From a virus, in the IMG/VR virus record IMGVR_UViG_3300033571_008978, positions 1 through 40,978 of that record: DNA of 40,978 nt; one strand, written 5' to 3'. This document shows, in pieces, positions 27,991-39,799 of the stretch. The stretch's first letter is position 1; each line of letters begins with the position of its first letter. The notes below the pieces were generated by a model. The model saw nothing but the letters and a program-made list of their open reading frames with translations. It was not told the DNA's origin and made no database searches. A program made the position numbers and the translations under genes.

Positions 27991-28407
27991 TCAAGGATTG
28001 CCGTTGTCTCCCGGAGACGGTGATTCACGCTTCAAGGTCCTACTCAATGCTTCTTGAAGAGTTTCTACCCGTGCGACCTTCGCCTGCAGGTCAGCGATCT
28101 GTCCGCGCATCGAAAGCAAGAGCTCGCGCACGTCATCTTCGTCTCCTGCCCGGTCAACCGGATGGCCGGCAATCAGAAGAGCTTTTGCGTTGAGCGCCTG
28201 AGTCGTAGTCTCCAAGGCCGCTGCGATTTCCTCGAGACGGGAGAACGCGGCGGCCTTTTTGCCTTCGCTTCGTTCCCACCGGCCGACCGTCTGAACGGAT
28301 ACATCCAGCCGCCTGGCTAGGTCTTCCTGAGATAGGTCGAGCTCTTCGCGTCGATTGCGGATTGCTTGACTCAATGCGGTTTTCTGTTGCCCTGCCACTG
28401 CCTGCAT
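27991..28407 (-). CDS. XRE-family repressor
   Basis: A 138-residue DNA-binding protein read leftward. The start is at ATG 28407 because AAGGAGGG lies 6 bases upstream. An XRE helix-turn-helix covers about residues 10-62 (LSQAIRNRREELDLSQEDLA, then RRLDVSVQTVGRWERSEGKK). The C-terminal half (QIADLQAKVARVETLQEALS) is a coiled coil for dimerisation. No peptidase or RecA-cleavage domain is present. It stands opposite the early operon with an 85-base shared control region, which fits the phage immunity repressor. Confidence 0.87.
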   Translation of the reverse strand: MQAVAGQQKTALSQAIRNRREELDLSQEDLARRLDVSVQTVGRWERSEGKKAAAFSRLEEIAAALETTTQALNAKALLIAGHPVDRAGDEDDVRELLLSMRGQIADLQAKVARVETLQEALSRTLKRESPSPGDNGNP

Positions 28408-28492
28408 CGTAGCCCTCCTTGGCTTGTTTTGGTAGCACACACAATCTATCGTGTCTTGTCGTGACATCTTTTGATACACTAGCAGACGCGTT
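28408..28492. promoter_or_regulatory. Divergent control region of repressor and early operon
   Basis: An A/T-richer region between the divergent genes. Rightward, TGATACACT (28472-28480) is an extended -10 box, which would place the transcript start about 6 bases before ATG 28493. Possible operators are TCGTG repeated at 28449 and 28459 (one helical turn apart) and the dyad TGTC-N7-GACA at 28452-28466. They overlap the expected -35 region of the rightward promoter, where repressor binding would block it. The leftward promoter cannot be assigned with certainty. Confidence 0.6.
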
Positions 28493-28666
28493 ATGGAAGA
28501 CCTAAAGACAGCTGACCGGGTAAAGGGCGTCAACGTCCGCATGCCCGTCGAGGAATGGGACAAAGCCGCAAAGGCTGCCGAGGCCGAGTGTCGGTCGCTG
28601 TCCGGTCACGTCCGGTTCCTCATCCGCAAGGACATCGAGGAAAGGGAGAAGTCATGGACGCAGTAG
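28493..28666 (+). CDS. Ribbon-helix-helix DNA-binding protein
   Basis: A 57-residue protein, first gene of the rightward early operon. GVNVRMPVEEWDKAAKAAEA (about residues 12-31) followed by SLSGHVRFLIRKDIEE (about 35-50) is the strand-helix-helix pattern of Arc/CopG-type regulators. There is no Shine-Dalgarno sequence before the ATG, and the predicted transcript starts only a few bases upstream, so it may be translated from a nearly leaderless mRNA. It could act as the Cro-like counterpart of the repressor. Confidence 0.72.
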   Translation: MEDLKTADRVKGVNVRMPVEEWDKAAKAAEAECRSLSGHVRFLIRKDIEEREKSWTQ

Positions 28667-31376: not shown

Positions 31377-31942
31377 GCGACCTAGCTGAACTAGATGACG
31401 CTCGCTACGACATGCGTCCTTCGCTTTCAGCGTGCGAAGAGGTCATTGAGAGGGCTTTTACCGCCTACGCGTCAGCTGGGCTTGCGCTCAGGACAATCCG
31501 TGATAACCGGCTTTACAAGGCTGAATTTTCTCGCTTCGATGATTACTGTCGGTCCCGGTGGGGCTGGACTCGCGTCCACGCCCATCGGCTAATAGACGCC
31601 GCTGAAATTCATGAGCTGCTGTATCAAAGTTTGTTACCAATTGGTAACAAAGGAACTCCGCTACCTCGAGCTGAAAGCGTCGCTAGGGCACTAAAGCCCT
31701 TGGCTAACTCTCCCGAGGTTTTGGCGAGCACCTGGGTAGAGGTTGTCGAGAAGGCCGGCGAAGAACCGACTGCAGCGCAGGTCACAAAGGTAGTCGCACA
31801 GGTTCTCGGCCCGCCCCACGATTCAGGAACATCATTGGCGCCGCCCTCGGTGGCTATTAGCCGCCTAATCACACGCGGTTACTCGATCTTCGAACTCCGT
31901 CAGGCACTTGAGTGCATAGAAAGGGAGCAGTCCAATGAGTAG
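31373..31942 (+). CDS. KorB/ParB-like DNA-binding protein
   Basis: A 189-residue protein from GTG 31373 in GTGA overlap. The segment GLALRTIRDNRLYKAEFSRF, then DDYCRSRWGWTRVHAHRLID, then AAEIHELL (about residues 38-85) is the helix-turn-helix seen in plasmid- and phage-borne proteins related to the ParB/KorB DNA-binding core. PLPRAESVARALKPLANSPE and WVEVVEKAGEEPTAAQVTKV (about 100-145) continue the known pattern. A perfect 22-bp palindrome lies inside the gene. DNA from here to 33716 is visibly less GC-rich with more A/T-ending codons. It overlaps the GHKL ATPase gene by 8 bases. Confidence 0.7.
   Translation: MSDLAELDDARYDMRPSLSACEEVIERAFTAYASAGLALRTIRDNRLYKAEFSRFDDYCRSRWGWTRVHAHRLIDAAEIHELLYQSLLPIGNKGTPLPRAESVARALKPLANSPEVLASTWVEVVEKAGEEPTAAQVTKVVAQVLGPPHDSGTSLAPPSVAISRLITRGYSIFELRQALECIEREQSNE
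31630..31651. promoter_or_regulatory. Perfect 22-bp palindrome, candidate protein-binding site
   Basis: Bases 31630-31640 (TTTGTTACCAA) are the exact reverse complement of 31641-31651. It lies in the coding sequence of the KorB/ParB-like protein and encodes part of SLLPIGNKG. I found no second copy in the window. Perfect symmetry and size are those of a dimer-binding operator or a centromere-like site. Confidence 0.5.
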
Positions 31943-33716
31943 CACCGTTCCGGTTACCCTCACCAACAATCGAGTAACGATTGATCGGCTTTACCAAGAG
32001 GCGGGTCCGTTCCAATGGGCCCGTGAGACCGTCGTCAATGCCCTTGAAGCCAAGGCCACCAAGATCTATTTCGGCGTTGAGCCAGACGGGCTCAAGGGTA
32101 CTGGCCTGAGCCGCCGGTATATCGCTGACAACGGACGCGGGATGGATGAATCCGAGCTGGTCGAACTTTTTGGGGCCCTGGGTGGATCTGGAAAGAACGT
32201 TGGCGGGGCACACGAAAACTTTGGCGTTGGGGCGAAGATTTCACTGCTGCCATGGAATAGGGCTGGCCTTCTTGTTTGCTCTTGGAAAGACGGTGTCGGG
32301 AGCATGATCTGGCTGAAGGCAGATGATGAAACAGGCGAATACGGACTGCAGCAGGTTGTCCACAATGGAATCAATACAACCGCTTGGCCCGCTGAACTGG
32401 TCTCCGAGTTAGGGCTGGGAGTTGACAATCTCAAACCTGAATGGATTGAAGATCACGGAACGGTCCTTTTACTTCTTGGAAATGATTCTGAGGAGAGCAC
32501 GTACTACTCAGCCGAGAGGGACGAGAGTGGTCACAACAAGCTCAGGCAATATCTAAACGAGCGGTTTTGGGTGTTGCCAGATCATTGTGAGGTTTTTGTT
32601 GAGGAGCATGACAAAGACAAGTTGACGGTCCGCCAAGTCAAGGGCGCCAGGCACCAGCTCGATCAGATGCAAGATCCAATTTCGGGCACGATGGATCTCC
32701 AGAGTGGTGCGAGCGTGAGCTGGTTTTACGACATCAATCGTGAGGCCCGCGCAGCGGAATCTTGGTCACACAAGAGGGGCTACATGGCGGCTAAGTATTG
32801 CGATGAGCTCTACGAGGTCGAAAGGCGCATACATCGTTACAACGACTTTGGCATCACCTCAAATGAGGTGCGTAGTCGTCTCTTTGTGATTGTGGAGCCG
32901 AGGGTGTCGGACGCTAATCGACGCAATGGAGCCTTTCCCAAGGGTGATCGTTTCTCTTTGCTTTGGGCAGATGGGTCTGGCAATAACACTCCTCTCCCTT
33001 GGTCTGATTGGGCAGAGGAGTTTTTTGAGCGTATGCCCGAGGTGTTGAAGGACGAGCTCAGGAAGGATCAGGGCGGCGGCACAATCTCAGATGATCGCTA
33101 CAAAAAGAAGTTTGCGCACATGATGGATGCAAATCGCTTCCGGCTTTCGAGGCGACGGGTTGCACCAAGTGGAGATACATCAGTCGATGCCGACCTAGGA
33201 CATACGACCAAAAATGGGAGTAGCAGGGGCAGGCGAATAGTCTTGAGCGCCAACAGGCCGACTACCGGAAACTGTGACGGCTCGCAAGCGGCGACGGAGT
33301 CCGAGGTCATTGGCGGGATTCCAAGCTGGCGACCTTGCAAGGCGGCCGACATTGGTGCTGAGTGGATTGCAGAGTGGCATCCACGTGACATCAACGGGCC
33401 GACCGTTGCTTTGAACATCGAACACCCTGCCATCGTCAACCAGGTTGAGCATTGGGTGTCCAAGTATGCAAAGAGATACTCGGCCATTGTCGAAAGCGCC
33501 GTTCACGACGTTTATGGCGAGAGCCTCGTTGCGAAGATCTGCCATAGCGAGGGCCTTTCGCGAGATGCGGGCGTAGTGAAGCAGAATCTGGATTTGAAGT
33601 ATCGGTCGAAGGAGGCCCTGACAATGGCTTGTCTAGGTCTAATCAACGAGGATGCCGCGATTCAGCAGCGCATCAATCTTCCGAAGAACAAGTCAACGAC
33701 CGCTGGGGTTGAGTAG
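31935..33716 (+). CDS. GHKL (Hsp90/MORC-like) ATPase
   Basis: A 593-residue protein with AAGGGAG upstream. The Bergerat ATP-binding fold is clear: N box RETVVNALEAKAT (about residues 30-42, Glu31 and Asn35), DNGRGMD (65-71) and the lid GGSGKNVGGAHENFGVGAK (about 83-101). The central and C-terminal parts, about 450 residues, are mixed helix/strand with aromatic motifs (SVSWFYDINREARAAESW) and match no common histidine kinase, gyrase or MutL layout. There is no His-kinase phosphorylation box. It is paired by gene overlap with the DNA-binding protein upstream. Codon use differs from the structural genes, suggesting acquisition as a cargo pair. Confidence 0.8.
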   Translation: MSSTVPVTLTNNRVTIDRLYQEAGPFQWARETVVNALEAKATKIYFGVEPDGLKGTGLSRRYIADNGRGMDESELVELFGALGGSGKNVGGAHENFGVGAKISLLPWNRAGLLVCSWKDGVGSMIWLKADDETGEYGLQQVVHNGINTTAWPAELVSELGLGVDNLKPEWIEDHGTVLLLLGNDSEESTYYSAERDESGHNKLRQYLNERFWVLPDHCEVFVEEHDKDKLTVRQVKGARHQLDQMQDPISGTMDLQSGASVSWFYDINREARAAESWSHKRGYMAAKYCDELYEVERRIHRYNDFGITSNEVRSRLFVIVEPRVSDANRRNGAFPKGDRFSLLWADGSGNNTPLPWSDWAEEFFERMPEVLKDELRKDQGGGTISDDRYKKKFAHMMDANRFRLSRRRVAPSGDTSVDADLGHTTKNGSSRGRRIVLSANRPTTGNCDGSQAATESEVIGGIPSWRPCKAADIGAEWIAEWHPRDINGPTVALNIEHPAIVNQVEHWVSKYAKRYSAIVESAVHDVYGESLVAKICHSEGLSRDAGVVKQNLDLKYRSKEALTMACLGLINEDAAIQQRINLPKNKSTTAGVE

Positions 33717-35753: not shown

Positions 35754-35926
35754 GCGTTCCCCAACACCTGATCGAGCGCGGCATACAGGCCGTTATCGCC
35801 CGAAGGGAGGCAGATTCAGGTCTGACCTTCTCCATCGTCGCCAGACCAAGCGATTCTGATGCGGTCGCTGCCACGGCCTCGAGCGATGTAGACGCCATCC
35901 ATGACGGCGAAGGCGAAAGCACGTAA
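35750..35926 (+). CDS. Short open frame facing the integrase, possible gene remnant
   Basis: ATG 35750 overlaps the HNH stop (ATGA), as for real genes of this operon. The first residues (QHLIERGIQAVIARREAD) look natural. From 35816 the frame is antisense to the integrase end and the product (58 residues in all) becomes low quality. It may be a small gene whose 3' part was replaced when the integrase gene was inserted. Confidence 0.3.
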   Translation: MSVPQHLIERGIQAVIARREADSGLTFSIVARPSDSDAVAATASSDVDAIHDGEGEST

Positions 35927-37228
35927 GTCTTGATCAGTCGGGGAGCTCAGATCAACGGCAAGCAGGGAATCCGACCGGATGGCCTCATCGCGTGCCGCCT
36001 GGGCTTCTCTAAGCGCTTTCGACCTGGCGACCATGCCGGCCTCCCACTTCTCCTGACCGAGGGAGGTTCTGGCGGTGAGGTTGTCCAAGAAGGCATCCAA
36101 TTCGGCTTCTGCCGTTTCGACCGCGGCGTCAAGCTCTTCGACATCGGTGCGGGCCCCGGCCAGCTCGAAGCCGGCCATGGCCTCTCTGGCCTCATTGAAG
36201 ACGAGATCCTCAACTATCGACGCAGAGATGACGGCTCCTTTCCCGCACCTGGCACCGCAGCGATAGACGGGGATGTTGCCAGCCGATCCGCCGAAGCGGT
36301 TACCACTGAGCGTCGAGCCGCAGTTCTCACACCGCAACAGACCGACAAGCGCCAGGGACTGGGCCGAGCGCATCGGTCTGGCCGAGCCCGGTTGCGCTGC
36401 CTTGAAGGTGGCCGGGTCGACAAGCCGCGGGTGGCTGTCGGTGGCGGACATGTCTCCGTAGTGCAGCTCGCCCAGGTAGAACCGGTTCTTGAGCCATCTG
36501 CGAATCTGGCTGCTCGTGTAGTTGGAGTCCAGCCGGGAGTTGACCCAACGGGCAATCTCGCCAAGCGGTGTCTGGGCCGCGGCCTGGTCAAAGATTTCGG
36601 AGACAATGGGGCCTTCGACCGGATCGGGCACGACTGTCCCGACAGCAGGCTCAAACCCGAGGATCTTGGCCGCGTCGGCCGGGCTGATGTGATTGTCCTT
36701 GACCGGCGGGGACTTGACCCGCAGGTAACCGAAGGGCGTAGGCCCGATTGGTGCGCCGCGTTTGATCGCCCGAGACTTGGCCGCTCGCCAAGACGCCTTC
36801 GACTGGTCAAGGAAGAGCTCAGCGTTGGCAAGGAAGCTCGTCAACATGTATTTGCCCTCCGGAGTCGACGGGTTGATGCGCTCCTGGCAGGAGGCAAAGA
36901 CCTTGCCGGATTCGGTCAGCTCCCTGATCACCGAAGCCCCGTCAGCCACCGATCTGGCGAAGCGGTCAATTCGCATGACCACGATGCCATCAAGGTCGCC
37001 AGACCGGATCAGCGCGAGCGCCTGTTGGAAGGCCGGCCGCTCGAGGGTGCCGCCCGAGAAGTCTTCATCGGTGAACCATTGGTCGATCAACCCCTCCATG
37101 TCGTAGGCGTAGTCGCTGATAGCCTGTCGCTGCAGGTCGGGGGAGATGTAACCCTCACCGGCCCGCCCGCCAACGCGGCTCACCCTGATATATCCAGCCA
37201 GTTTCAATCCGCTTCTCATTATGGTCAT
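35816..37228 (-). CDS. int: Large serine integrase
   Basis: A 470-residue serine recombinase that would integrate the phage by attP x attB recombination. The catalytic domain begins LAGYIRVSRVGGRAGEG with Ser17 as nucleophile, and SPDLQRQAI, DEDFSGGTLERPAFQ and DGIVVMRIDRFARS follow. The recombinase domain (about 165-270) includes PFGYLRV and the WLKNRFYLGE turn. A zinc ribbon lies at about 298-330 (GLLRCENCGSTLSG, then YRCGARCGKG). A coiled-coil segment (about 350-430, AAVETAEAELDAFL) is also present. ATGs at 37228 and 37219 are both possible; neither has a good ribosome binding site. No recombination directionality factor is recognised. Confidence 0.93.
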   Translation of the reverse strand: MTIMRSGLKLAGYIRVSRVGGRAGEGYISPDLQRQAISDYAYDMEGLIDQWFTDEDFSGGTLERPAFQQALALIRSGDLDGIVVMRIDRFARSVADGASVIRELTESGKVFASCQERINPSTPEGKYMLTSFLANAELFLDQSKASWRAAKSRAIKRGAPIGPTPFGYLRVKSPPVKDNHISPADAAKILGFEPAVGTVVPDPVEGPIVSEIFDQAAAQTPLGEIARWVNSRLDSNYTSSQIRRWLKNRFYLGELHYGDMSATDSHPRLVDPATFKAAQPGSARPMRSAQSLALVGLLRCENCGSTLSGNRFGGSAGNIPVYRCGARCGKGAVISASIVEDLVFNEAREAMAGFELAGARTDVEELDAAVETAEAELDAFLDNLTARTSLGQEKWEAGMVARSKALREAQAARDEAIRSDSLLAVDLSSPTDQDLRAFAFAVMDGVYIARGRGSDRIRIAWSGDDGEGQT

Positions 37229-37302
37229 TTCGACAAATCAGTTCAGAATGTTTCTCTTGACCATACAGAAGCAAGAATGCAAGCAACCATCAGGAGGATC
37301 AA

Positions 37303-37530
37303 GTGAGCTGCGAGTGCGGGAGCTGTAGATGCCGGGGCAAGGCGGTTGTCGATAAAGACGAATACGACGGGCTGGTCAAGGCGGCCGAGCCGAACATCGA
37401 CCTGCGAGAAGCCGCGATCCAGCTGGTCGGCGCCGCTAATCACCAGGGCGTTGAAGGCATGGTCAAGGTCTGGGTCCAGAAGCTCGAGGAAGCGATTGAC
37501 AACGAAGGGGCTGCCAGGAGGGCCGCATGA
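37303..37530 (+). CDS. Small Cys-rich hypothetical protein
   Basis: A 75-residue protein from GTG 37303, with CAGGAGG upstream. A dense Cys cluster at the N-terminus (CECGSCRCRG, residues 3-12) may bind metal. The rest is a helix (REAAIQLVGAANHQGVEGMV). It is the first rightward gene after the integrase. The 74-base gap before it would hold promoters for both directions; I could not assign one with confidence. Confidence 0.55.
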   Translation: MSCECGSCRCRGKAVVDKDEYDGLVKAAEPNIDLREAAIQLVGAANHQGVEGMVKVWVQKLEEAIDNEGAARRAA

Positions 37531-38093
37531 AAGACCCGCTGTCAGGTATGCGCCGAGCAATCGCGGAGCGCAAAATCAAGGTGCTCAGGTGGCCGGCCGA
37601 CAAGCCCTGCCCCGTCGAGAAGGGCCAGATGTTCGAAGTCGGCTCAATCAAAATCGAGATTGAGAGCGTCAACCGAAAAATCGTCAAGGGAGCGCCGGCC
37701 GAATGGCACGCCACGTTTATCCGCCATGAGCCCGACCGCTACTACTTCCTGCGGCAGGCCCCGCCGGTCCATGCCGGATCTGAAAAGGACCTCGACTTGG
37801 ACATGTCTGCGACCGAGAGGGCCCGGCGCGACGGCAGCTACACCTCGAGCAAGGTTGCAGCCTCACCTGGCGAGCCCGAGACCGTAGGGCCTGATTGGGA
37901 AGACCCCAACACCGCAGAGCGGGAGCTTCGACGCCACGAAGCAAGGCGCGAGATCGAGCGCCAGCGCATGGAGCAGGAAGCCAAGTCAAGGCTGGGGCGG
38001 CTGCTGCAGGGATCGACGCCCGAACAGGCCCAGATCATCTTGGCTCAGGTCGAAATGATGTGCCAGCAGGCCGAACAGAAAACCGCTGCTTAG
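37527..38093 (+). CDS. Hypothetical protein with beta domain and coiled coil
   Basis: A 188-residue protein in ATGA overlap. Residues 10-75 are beta-rich (KIKVLRWPADKPCP, KGQMFEVGSIKIEIESVNRK, EWHATFIRHEPDRYYFLR), somewhat like small RNA/DNA-binding barrel domains. Residues 125-185 are a charged coiled coil (AERELRRHEARREIERQRME). No family is recognised. Confidence 0.55.
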   Translation: MKDPLSGMRRAIAERKIKVLRWPADKPCPVEKGQMFEVGSIKIEIESVNRKIVKGAPAEWHATFIRHEPDRYYFLRQAPPVHAGSEKDLDLDMSATERARRDGSYTSSKVAASPGEPETVGPDWEDPNTAERELRRHEARREIERQRMEQEAKSRLGRLLQGSTPEQAQIILAQVEMMCQQAEQKTAA

Positions 38094-38099
38094 CCGTCA

Positions 38100-38128
38100 C
38101 TTTTTTCGTCCGCAACCGACCGTATTCT
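38100..38128 (+). promoter_or_regulatory. Promoter-like sequence before the structured RNA
   Basis: TATTCT (38123-38128) is a fair -10 box. Transcription would start about 38135-38136, immediately before the first paired base of the RNA structure. The -35 region (T-rich, near 38100-38105) is poor. The close match between predicted start and helix start is the main support. Confidence 0.4.
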
Positions 38129-38135
38129 TGTAGCA

Positions 38136-38285
38136 CGGTATCGGGAGCCCCGCTAAGGCGAAAGCGGCCGCCAGTGATGACGACAGCTGGCCCCTGCCCT
38201 GATACCGACCTCTTTCAAAGTCTCATCCCGTCCCTCCCTGCGGGGTGAACCGGCGTGCTTCGGTGCGCCGGAGTCTTCTTTCGTG
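38136..38285 (+). ncRNA. Structured RNA or riboswitch-like leader
   Basis: A 71-base three-way junction can be drawn. The closing helix pairs 38136-38145 with 38198-38207 (10 bp, one G-U). Hairpin 2 pairs 38150-38154 with 38163-38167, loop AAGGCGAA. Hairpin 3 pairs 38170-38174 with 38187-38191, 12-base loop. A separate 6-bp hairpin (38225-38230 with 38241-38246) and a terminator-type hairpin follow. It is not a tRNA: no T-loop or anticodon arm fits. It matches no riboswitch class I can recall. It could be a free small RNA or a leader controlling the next gene, whose start is at 38283. Confidence 0.55.
38250..38285 (+). terminator. Terminator hairpin with TTCG loop
   Basis: CCGGCGTGC (38250-38258) pairs with GTGCGCCGG (38263-38271) around a TTCG loop, then a T-rich tail follows. 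The GGAG at its 3' side is the only possible ribosome binding site for GTG 38283, so the hairpin could stop transcription or hide the start site. Confidence 0.7.
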
Positions 38286-38462
38286 ATCTACGAGATCCCC
38301 AAACACCTGCAACCAAAACCCGACCCCGGCCCGTATCCGCCGGGGCGAGTGTGCAGGCACGAGCTCTGCATCACCAGGCTCAACCGAAACAACCCAGGTC
38401 CCTACTGCCACCACCATTGGACCGATCAGCTGCCGCCAGACGAGAGACTTGCCGCAGCATGA
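38283..38462 (+). CDS. Small zinc-finger-like protein
   Basis: A 59-residue protein from GTG 38283. VCRHELCITRLNRNNPGPYC, then HHHW (about residues 23-46) has the C-x4-C-x12-C-H-H-H spacing of a small zinc site. The L-N-R-N-N-P-G pattern recalls small actinobacterial regulator fragments. Its stop lies inside the next gene. Its expression would depend on reading through or opening the hairpin just upstream. Confidence 0.55.
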   Translation: MIYEIPKHLQPKPDPGPYPPGRVCRHELCITRLNRNNPGPYCHHHWTDQLPPDERLAAA

Positions 38463-38655
38463 CCTGATCCGCCACTGCGACCCCGAACCAAGGTCCGCGG
38501 CGACTATCGCCCACATCACCGGCCAGAGAATCGAAGTGGTGCTCTGGCAGCTCAGGGAGCTTGAGGATGCGGGCGTCATCCGGCACGTCACTGACGAGGC
38601 CGGCGTTATGCGTTGGGTAAAGGTGCCCATCGAGATCAAAGGGAGGCTCCTATGA
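38449..38655 (+). CDS. Small winged-helix protein
   Basis: A 68-residue protein from TTG 38449, overlapping the zinc-finger gene by 14 bases. SAATIAHITGQRIEVVLWQL, then RELEDAGVIRHVTDEAGVM (about residues 17-55) is a winged helix-turn-helix. No upstream ATG is available in this frame, so the TTG start is the most natural. The pair of small DNA-binding proteins may regulate the right-end operon. Confidence 0.6.
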   Translation: MPQHDLIRHCDPEPRSAATIAHITGQRIEVVLWQLRELEDAGVIRHVTDEAGVMRWVKVPIEIKGRLL

Positions 38656-39464
38656 GGGTCTACATCACCGGCATTGCCGGATTCATCGGATCGCACCTGG
38701 CACGCCACCTTGAAGCCCAAGGCCACACGGTCAACGGCTGTGACAACTTACTTTTCGGCAGTCCAGACAACCTTTCGACCGGCGACATCCCCTGGACGCG
38801 CAAAGACGTCCTTCACATGCACCGCCCAGGGCTTGACTGGTTTGACCCACATGTCGTAATCCACCTGGCTGCGGTCAGCTGCTCGAGGCACCCCAACGAG
38901 GCGCTTATCTGGCAGAACAATCTTTGGGCGACAGCGCACCTGATGTCAGTTGCGAAGCGTCGCCGCATCATCTTCGCCTCAACGTGTCTGGCCGATAAGC
39001 CAGAGACCGGCGCTTATGCCGACTCCAAGAGGGCCTGCGAGAAAATCATCAGCCCCGAAGGAGCGACGATATTGCGCTTGGCGAACGTCTATGGCCCCAG
39101 ACAGCGTGATTGGGGCACAGAGCCTTCTGCAATGGCCGCATGGCGTAAAGCCGAGGCCGAGGGCAAGCCGATCCGCATTGACGGCGACGGCACCCAGACC
39201 CGAGACTTCATCCACGTAGATGATGTCGTTCGGGCCTTTTCGCTTGCCGTGGAAACCCCAGAAGCCGCGGGTCAGACCATGGACATCTGCACGGGCATCC
39301 AGACCCCAATCATCGAAGCCGCGGAGCGATTCAAGGGCCCGCGTGACTATCAGCGCCGCCCACACAATGACCCGGATCACACGACACAAGACCCCGAGCT
39401 GGCCGAAAAGGTTCTGGGCTTTCGGGCCGAGATCCCGCTTTACCAACTTTCGGAGGCCGCATGA
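38652..39464 (+). CDS. NAD-dependent epimerase/dehydratase (second copy)
   Basis: A 270-residue protein; ATG 38652 overlaps the winged-helix stop and has GGGAGG upstream. The Rossmann motif is GIAGFIGSHLARHL (residues 7-20). The catalytic region has FASTCLADKPETGAYADSKR with Tyr about 121 and Lys about 125. RLANVYGPRQRDWGT and DGDGTQTRDFIHVDDVVRAF are the classic substrate-binding segments. It is shorter than and clearly different from the 9396-10322 protein, so it was probably acquired separately. The reaction is not assignable. Confidence 0.87.
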   Translation: MRVYITGIAGFIGSHLARHLEAQGHTVNGCDNLLFGSPDNLSTGDIPWTRKDVLHMHRPGLDWFDPHVVIHLAAVSCSRHPNEALIWQNNLWATAHLMSVAKRRRIIFASTCLADKPETGAYADSKRACEKIISPEGATILRLANVYGPRQRDWGTEPSAMAAWRKAEAEGKPIRIDGDGTQTRDFIHVDDVVRAFSLAVETPEAAGQTMDICTGIQTPIIEAAERFKGPRDYQRRPHNDPDHTTQDPELAEKVLGFRAEIPLYQLSEAA

Positions 39465-39799
39465 GCTACCCAGCCAAATACAAGATCAGCGTCAAGCAGG
39501 GAGACACGCTGGACAAGACTTTCACCTGGCAGGTCGAGGATTCCCCAGTCAATCTGACGGGCTTTACGGCCGACATGCAGGTCAGAAGCACTCCTGAGTC
39601 CGACACGGTTGTGCTCGATGCAGGCAACTTCATCACGTTGGGCGGCACGCTCGGAACGGTCAGGGTCAACATCCCGGCCGGCACAATCGGAGACTTAGAC
39701 GCAGGCCGCTACGTCTACGACCTCGAGCTCAATAACGGCGGCACCGTAACTACCCTGCTCGCCGGTGTCTTTCAGGTATCTGCCGAAGTAACCCGATGA
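39461..39799 (+). CDS. Virion Ig-like (BppU N-terminal-like) protein
   Basis: A 112-residue beta protein in ATGA overlap. KISVKQGDTLDKTFTWQVED, VNLTGFTADMQVRS and GRYVYDLELNNGGTVTTLLA match the first domain of baseplate proteins such as BppU (Q-G-D-T, then N-L-T-G, then M-Q-V-R). It is probably a structural or decoration protein. Its place far from the tail genes, at the end of the rightward unit, is unusual but contiguous with the late genes once the genome is circular. Confidence 0.6.
   Translation: MSYPAKYKISVKQGDTLDKTFTWQVEDSPVNLTGFTADMQVRSTPESDTVVLDAGNFITLGGTLGTVRVNIPAGTIGDLDAGRYVYDLELNNGGTVTTLLAGVFQVSAEVTR

What the first reader, a model, noticed from the sequence alone, without database searches (positions are those of the whole stretch)
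38094..38285. Undescribed structured RNA with own promoter-like box and terminator
In a genome where genes overlap, 190 bases carry no gene but hold a 10-bp closing helix around two hairpins, then a 6-bp hairpin, then a TTCG-loop terminator. A -10-like box would start transcription exactly at the first base of the closing helix. The order aptamer-like junction - terminator/ribosome-site hairpin - small zinc-finger gene is that of a riboswitch; it could equally be a free phage small RNA. I tested it by eye as tRNA and hammerhead and it does not fit.
Basis: partly seen in the sequence, partly recalled or inferred. Interest (0 to 1): 0.75.

Follow-up and report, generated by a model that had tools for sequence, protein, structure and literature searches.

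The report
Structured leader of phage late operon
The 190 gene-free bases look like the start-up region of the block of virus-particle genes in a temperate phage, with a weak promoter and several RNA hairpins ending in a terminator-like one, rather than a proven new riboswitch or small RNA.

Summary
38094-38282 is non-coding in all six frames and can fold as described: a 10-bp closing helix (38136-38207) around two small hairpins, a 9-bp hairpin, and a 9-bp TTCG hairpin overlapping the ribosome site of a putative zinc-finger gene. The fold is good but not unique: about 1% of same-size pieces of this genome fold as well. Context says more than structure. Codon usage reveals a serine integrase and a CI-like repressor on the minus strand (temperate phage). 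The gap sits at the early/late junction. A distant relative (66% integrase identity) has an unalignable 213-base gap at the same junction, again with a TATNNT box exactly 7 bases before a stable helix and GGAGTCTTC after the last hairpin. I read it as a promoter-bearing, terminator-ended 5' leader of the late operon, working like lambda pR'-tR'; the antitermination step is inferred. A riboswitch is unsupported: aptamer-like element and terminator fold together without competing. A put-like RNA or free small RNA is not excluded. Known kind, unclassified fold, modest interest.

The parts
38107..38112 (+). CGTCCG box, 16 bases upstream of the -10-like box; same spacing in the relative's leader (L044 4569)
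   Evidence: noticed after the fact, suggestive only
38123..38128 (+). -10-like box TATTCT; predicted start 38135/38136
   Evidence: TATNNT is rare here (12 on both strands of 41 kb); no -35 box
38136..38207 (+). closed RNA domain: 10-bp helix 38136-38145/38198-38207 around hairpins 38150-38154/38163-38167 and 38170-38175/38186-38191; an alternative inner form of equal energy exists
   Evidence: 1% of genome windows fold as well
38223..38248 (+). second hairpin, 9 pairs including G-U
38250..38271 (+). TTCG-loop hairpin, 9 pairs, followed by the T-rich but interrupted tail AGTCTTCTTTC; terminator-like
   Evidence: 7 such sites found against 5.1 expected in the region scanned, so the consensus alone is weak
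38270..38278 (+). GGAGTCTTC: GGAG is the likely ribosome site of the gene at 38283, partly inside the hairpin; the 9-mer also follows the last hairpin of the relative's leader
   Evidence: sequence
38283..38462 (+). putative 59-aa Cys/His (zinc-finger-like) protein, GTG start
   Evidence: codon score near zero (0.018 per codon), so the gene is likely but not certain
38449..38655 (+). winged-helix protein, homolog in the relative's late operon (50% identity)
37527..38093 (+). gene just upstream, last of the regulatory/early side (188 aa, weak dsDNA_bind match below cut-off)
39461..39799 (+). phrog_1084 protein; in the relative its homolog is the first gene after the leader
35816..37228 (-). serine integrase, context marker for the junction

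Best explanation
38094-38282 is the promoter and structured 5' leader of the late operon of a temperate phage, probably of Thermoleophilia. RNA polymerase starts near 38136, makes a compact leader (10-bp closed domain, then two hairpins) and mostly stops at the TTCG hairpin around 38272-38281, releasing a leader RNA of about 140 bases; the same hairpin also shuts off read-through from the early genes upstream. Late in infection a phage factor, perhaps encoded just upstream or acting at the CGTCCG box, lets polymerase pass into the zinc-finger, winged-helix, epimerase, HNH, terminase and structural genes. This would work like lambda pR'-tR' with its 6S leader RNA. Shown: non-coding gap, hairpins, position, an equivalent gap in a relative. 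Inferred: start site, termination, antitermination.
For: Non-coding gap between regulatory genes and late genes. Relative L044 has a 213-nt non-coding gap at the same junction, after the 66%-identical integrase and two HTH genes and directly before the phrog_1084 homolog and structural genes. Both gaps have TATNNT exactly 7 nt before a stable helix (72/6000 and 82/6000 shuffles at 7 bp or more), CGTCCG 16 nt further up and GGAGTCTTC after the last hairpin. Terminator-like hairpin. The relative's leader holds a 12-mer otherwise found only in two inter-genic regions of that phage, as an operator would be.
Against: The two leaders do not align (p 0.5), so common descent is not shown. No -35 box. 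The T tail is interrupted and the relative's leader gives no hit in the terminator scan. No antiterminator gene identified. No transcript data. CGTCCG and GGAGTCTTC were noticed after the fact.
Confidence: 0.42

Rival explanations
1. A plain operon boundary: an ordinary terminator for the upstream genes and an ordinary promoter and 5' UTR for the next ones, with no regulation through the RNA; the closing helix is incidental or merely protects the 5' end.
For: Several other inter-genic gaps of this phage hold GC-rich hairpins, one with a TTCG loop; 1-5% of genome windows fold as well as the core.
Against: Three long helices in a row are uncommon, and the exact 7-base spacing from TATNNT to the helix recurs in a relative.
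Confidence: 0.3
2. A free-standing phage small RNA of about 70-140 nt acting in trans on host or phage mRNA.
For: Own -10-like box, compact domain, terminator. [quoted passage not shown]
Against: The sequence is not conserved in the relative with the same junction; the gene at 38283 begins within 12 bases of the hairpin, as a leader would have it.
Confidence: 0.1
3. A put-like cis-acting RNA that binds RNA polymerase and makes it ignore the terminators that follow.
For: A roughly 70-nt structured RNA at the very 5' end of an operon followed by terminator-like hairpins; HK022 putL is about 70 nt, just downstream of its promoter (PMC9378689).
Against: put is two stem-loops side by side, here one closed domain; put sits in early, not late, operons; no sequence test was possible.
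Confidence: 0.05
4. A riboswitch or RBS-masking switch controlling the zinc-finger gene.
For: Order junction - terminator/ribosome-site hairpin - gene; GG of the GGAG site is in the hairpin.
Against: The domain and the terminator hairpin coexist with probabilities near 1; no competing helix stronger than a weak 8-bp G-U-rich one; no Rfam match.
Confidence: 0.03
5. The fold is a chance product of GC-rich sequence and has no function as RNA.
For: 22 of 2274 windows of this genome reach the core's z; z of the stated interval is -1.07.
Against: 0/200 shuffles for 38136-38272; non-coding position; recurrence of the layout in a relative.
Confidence: 0.08
6. The inverted arms are the phage attachment site (attP) of the nearby serine integrase.
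For: Long inverted arms close to a serine integrase gene.
Against: In prophage contig L043 a host gene begins within 24 bases upstream of the integrase start, so attP should lie in 37229-37302, some 900 bases away.
Confidence: 0.02

Closest known systems
Phage lambda late leader pR'-tR' (6S RNA) with Q antitermination (from general knowledge); compare AlpA-controlled promoters with terminators before the first gene (PMC7969949)
   Same: Position at the early/late junction, promoter, short structured leader, terminator before the first late gene.
   Different: No Q-like or AlpA-like protein identified, weaker T tail, no sequence relation, nothing measured.
HK022 putRNA (PMC9378689)
   Same: About 70 nt, structured, at the 5' end of a phage transcript, followed by terminators.
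   Different: put is two adjacent stem-loops in early operons; here one closed 10-bp domain in front of late genes.
Late promoter regions and non-coding RNAs of actinophages L5/D29 (PMC5712189)
   Same: Actinobacterial phages whose late transcripts start at a defined point near the left genome end, with abundant RNAs of unknown function.
   Different: Those rest on RNA-seq; no sequence relation was found.

Membership tests
Late-operon leader with terminator (lambda pR'-tR' type) | Lies between the early/regulatory genes and the first late gene, same strand | tested here: met
   same in relative L044
Late-operon leader with terminator (lambda pR'-tR' type) | Active promoter at its upstream edge | tested here: inconclusive
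   rare TATNNT with fixed spacing to the helix but no -35 box
Late-operon leader with terminator (lambda pR'-tR' type) | Intrinsic terminator before the first gene | tested here: inconclusive
   hairpin with interrupted T tail; number of sites near the shuffled expectation
Late-operon leader with terminator (lambda pR'-tR' type) | Late antiterminator that acts at the promoter | not testable with these tools
   no recognisable antiterminator among the upstream genes in Pfam or PHROGs
Riboswitch | Match to a known aptamer family | tested here: not met
Riboswitch | Mutually exclusive helices linking aptamer and expression platform | tested here: not met
putRNA | Two adjacent stem-loops of about 70 nt that contact the zinc-binding domain of RNA polymerase | tested here: not met
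   the first 72 nt fold as one closed domain; the polymerase contact itself cannot be tested
tRNA or tRNA-like RNA | tRNA arms recognised by ARAGORN | tested here: not met
   (only random-level hits at thresholds of 50% or less)
New structured RNA family | Compensatory changes in homologs | not testable with these tools
   no homolog found (with 88)

The most novel reading that the evidence does not exclude
Temperate phages of this group start their late operon with a structured leader RNA whose first base is the first base of a closed domain, and this RNA itself controls the passage of polymerase through the terminator that follows (a put-like, protein-responsive or ligand-responsive late switch in phages of Thermoleophilia).
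Probability: 0.1. Interest if true: 0.6.

Novelty: new member of a known kind. Interest (0 to 1): 0.3.

Why it matters
If right, it marks the late-gene switch of temperate phages that probably infect a little-studied class of soil actinobacteria (Thermoleophilia) and gives a precise 190-base region to test. As a new RNA class it would matter more, but nothing here shows that.

Tried and rejected
Homolog searches of the RNA: blastn against phages, exact and degenerate patterns in IMG/VR and GTDB, and a single-sequence covariance model over all relatives and 399 Thermoleophilia genomes; its five weak hits (27-31 bits) all lie inside host genes and are chance. The L036 hit with a similar closing helix lies antisense in a terminase gene. 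Neighbouring proteins (188-aa gene, zinc finger, 593-aa gene, epimerase) gave no close relatives (the epimerase only distant ones). The plus-strand ORF 35930-37306 gave none because the real gene is the minus-strand integrase. tRNA, attP and riboswitch were considered and rejected (see rivals). Nineteen terminase relatives lacked a similar sequence. In other relatives the TATNNT-plus-helix feature turned up in inter-genic DNA of L025, L027 and L029, but in L025 and L027 the strand points away from the terminase genes, and in L029 the flanking genes lie on the other strand. A search with the relative's own terminase in Thermoleophilia found nothing.

Full report
What is there. The 189 bases 38094-38282, between a 188-aa gene and a putative 59-aa zinc-finger gene, score negative for coding in all six frames. 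Folding gives a 10-bp closing helix 38136-38145/38198-38207 with pair probabilities near 1; within it two forms of almost equal energy compete, a three-way junction and a single extended hairpin. Two more hairpins follow, 38223-38248 and the TTCG hairpin 38250-38271 (9 pairs each, G-U included). The last is followed by AGTCTTCTTTC, an interrupted T tail, and its 3' arm shares GG with the GGAG ribosome site of GTG 38283. A TATTCT at 38123 would start RNA at 38135/38136. It has no -35 partner and ranks 384th among sigma-70-like sites in the window, but TATNNT itself is rare in this genome: 12 on both strands.

Is it more than chance? The 72-nt core has z about -3.3 and 38136-38272 has z -3.64 (0 of 200 shuffles). 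Against the genome itself the core is in the top 1% by z (22 of 2274 windows) and the top 5% by GC-corrected energy. Three disjoint helices of at least 9 bp occur in 0.25% of shuffles and 0.6% of genome windows. So there is real structure potential, but it is not unique.

What the neighbourhood is. Codon usage exposes two genes hidden on the minus strand: a serine integrase 35816-37228 (Resolvase, Recombinase and Zn-ribbon domains) and a CI-like HTH_3 repressor 27991-28407, opposite an Arc-like protein. The phage is therefore temperate. Rightwards from 38283 come a zinc finger, a winged helix, an epimerase, phrog_1084 and HNH genes, then, across the contig ends, terminase, portal and capsid genes. 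The gap is the junction between the regulatory/early half and the late half. Terminase relatives at 61% identity occur in two Thermoleophilia genomes and an integrase relative in a Solirubrobacterales contig, so the host is probably of that class.

A relative with the same junction. IMG/VR contigs L041/L042 (also read as L044-L047) carry a 66% identical integrase and the same order: minus-strand integrase, two HTH genes, a 213-nt non-coding gap, the phrog_1084 homolog, structural genes, the winged-helix homolog, terminase genes and portal. The two gaps do not align (p 0.5), yet share three things: a TATNNT exactly seven bases before the first base of a stable helix (window 10 bp, relative 7 bp; about 1.2% and 1.4% of shuffles at 7 bp or more), CGTCCG 16 bases upstream of that box, and GGAGTCTTC directly after the last hairpin. 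The relative was tested with the spacing seen in the window, but the 7-bp threshold and the two short words were noticed after the fact; each is weak alone. Together they suggest a common layout with diverged sequence. The relative's leader also carries GGTTGACTTCAC, found otherwise only in two inter-genic regions of that phage, where it begins a near-palindrome, as an operator would.

Reading. The most economical account is a promoter-proximal, terminator-ended late leader, working like lambda pR'-tR' with its leader RNA (general knowledge) or like the AlpA promoters with their terminators (PMC7969949). Late transcripts of actinophages L5 and D29 also start at a mapped point, and those phages make abundant non-coding RNAs (PMC5712189). 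Start site, termination and antitermination are inferred. A plain operon boundary is nearly as likely. A riboswitch is unlikely: the aptamer-like element and the terminator coexist in the ensemble without a competing helix. A put-like role is possible by size and place but differs in topology (PMC9378689). The structure is not attP: a prophage junction places that directly upstream of the integrase start.

What could not be done. The five covariance-model hits in Thermoleophilia genomes lie inside host genes and are chance.

Noticed in passing
window 35816-37228 (-): Serine integrase on the minus strand, hidden under a longer-looking but spurious plus-strand ORF 35930-37306; shows the phage is temperate.
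   Followed up: yes
window 37229-37302; L043 6977-7001: Probable attP directly upstream of the integrase start: in the Solirubrobacterales contig L043 host genes, the first one looking like elongation factor P, begin within 24 bases of the integrase.
   Followed up: partly
window 27991-28492: CI-like HTH_3 repressor on the minus strand facing an Arc-like gene at 28493; the 85-base gap between them is the likely immunity/operator region.
   Followed up: partly
L044 4649; L047 7993 and 6786 (-): The 12-mer GGTTGACTTCAC occurs in the relative's late leader and in two inter-genic regions, where it begins a near-palindrome; a candidate repressor operator.
   Followed up: partly
L029 17728-18410: 683 non-coding bases in another terminase relative; a 144-nt part can fold as a multibranched domain with a long closing helix (z -2.7 on one strand, -3.1 on the other), no Rfam match; strand uncertain.
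   Followed up: partly
window 1; L038 1: A 92%-terminase relative's contig begins at the same distance (604 bases) before the terminase gene as this window, suggesting a physical genome end.
   Followed up: no
window 31935-33716: 593-aa protein with a weak HATPase match at its N-terminus in the replication region; no close relatives found.
   Followed up: no
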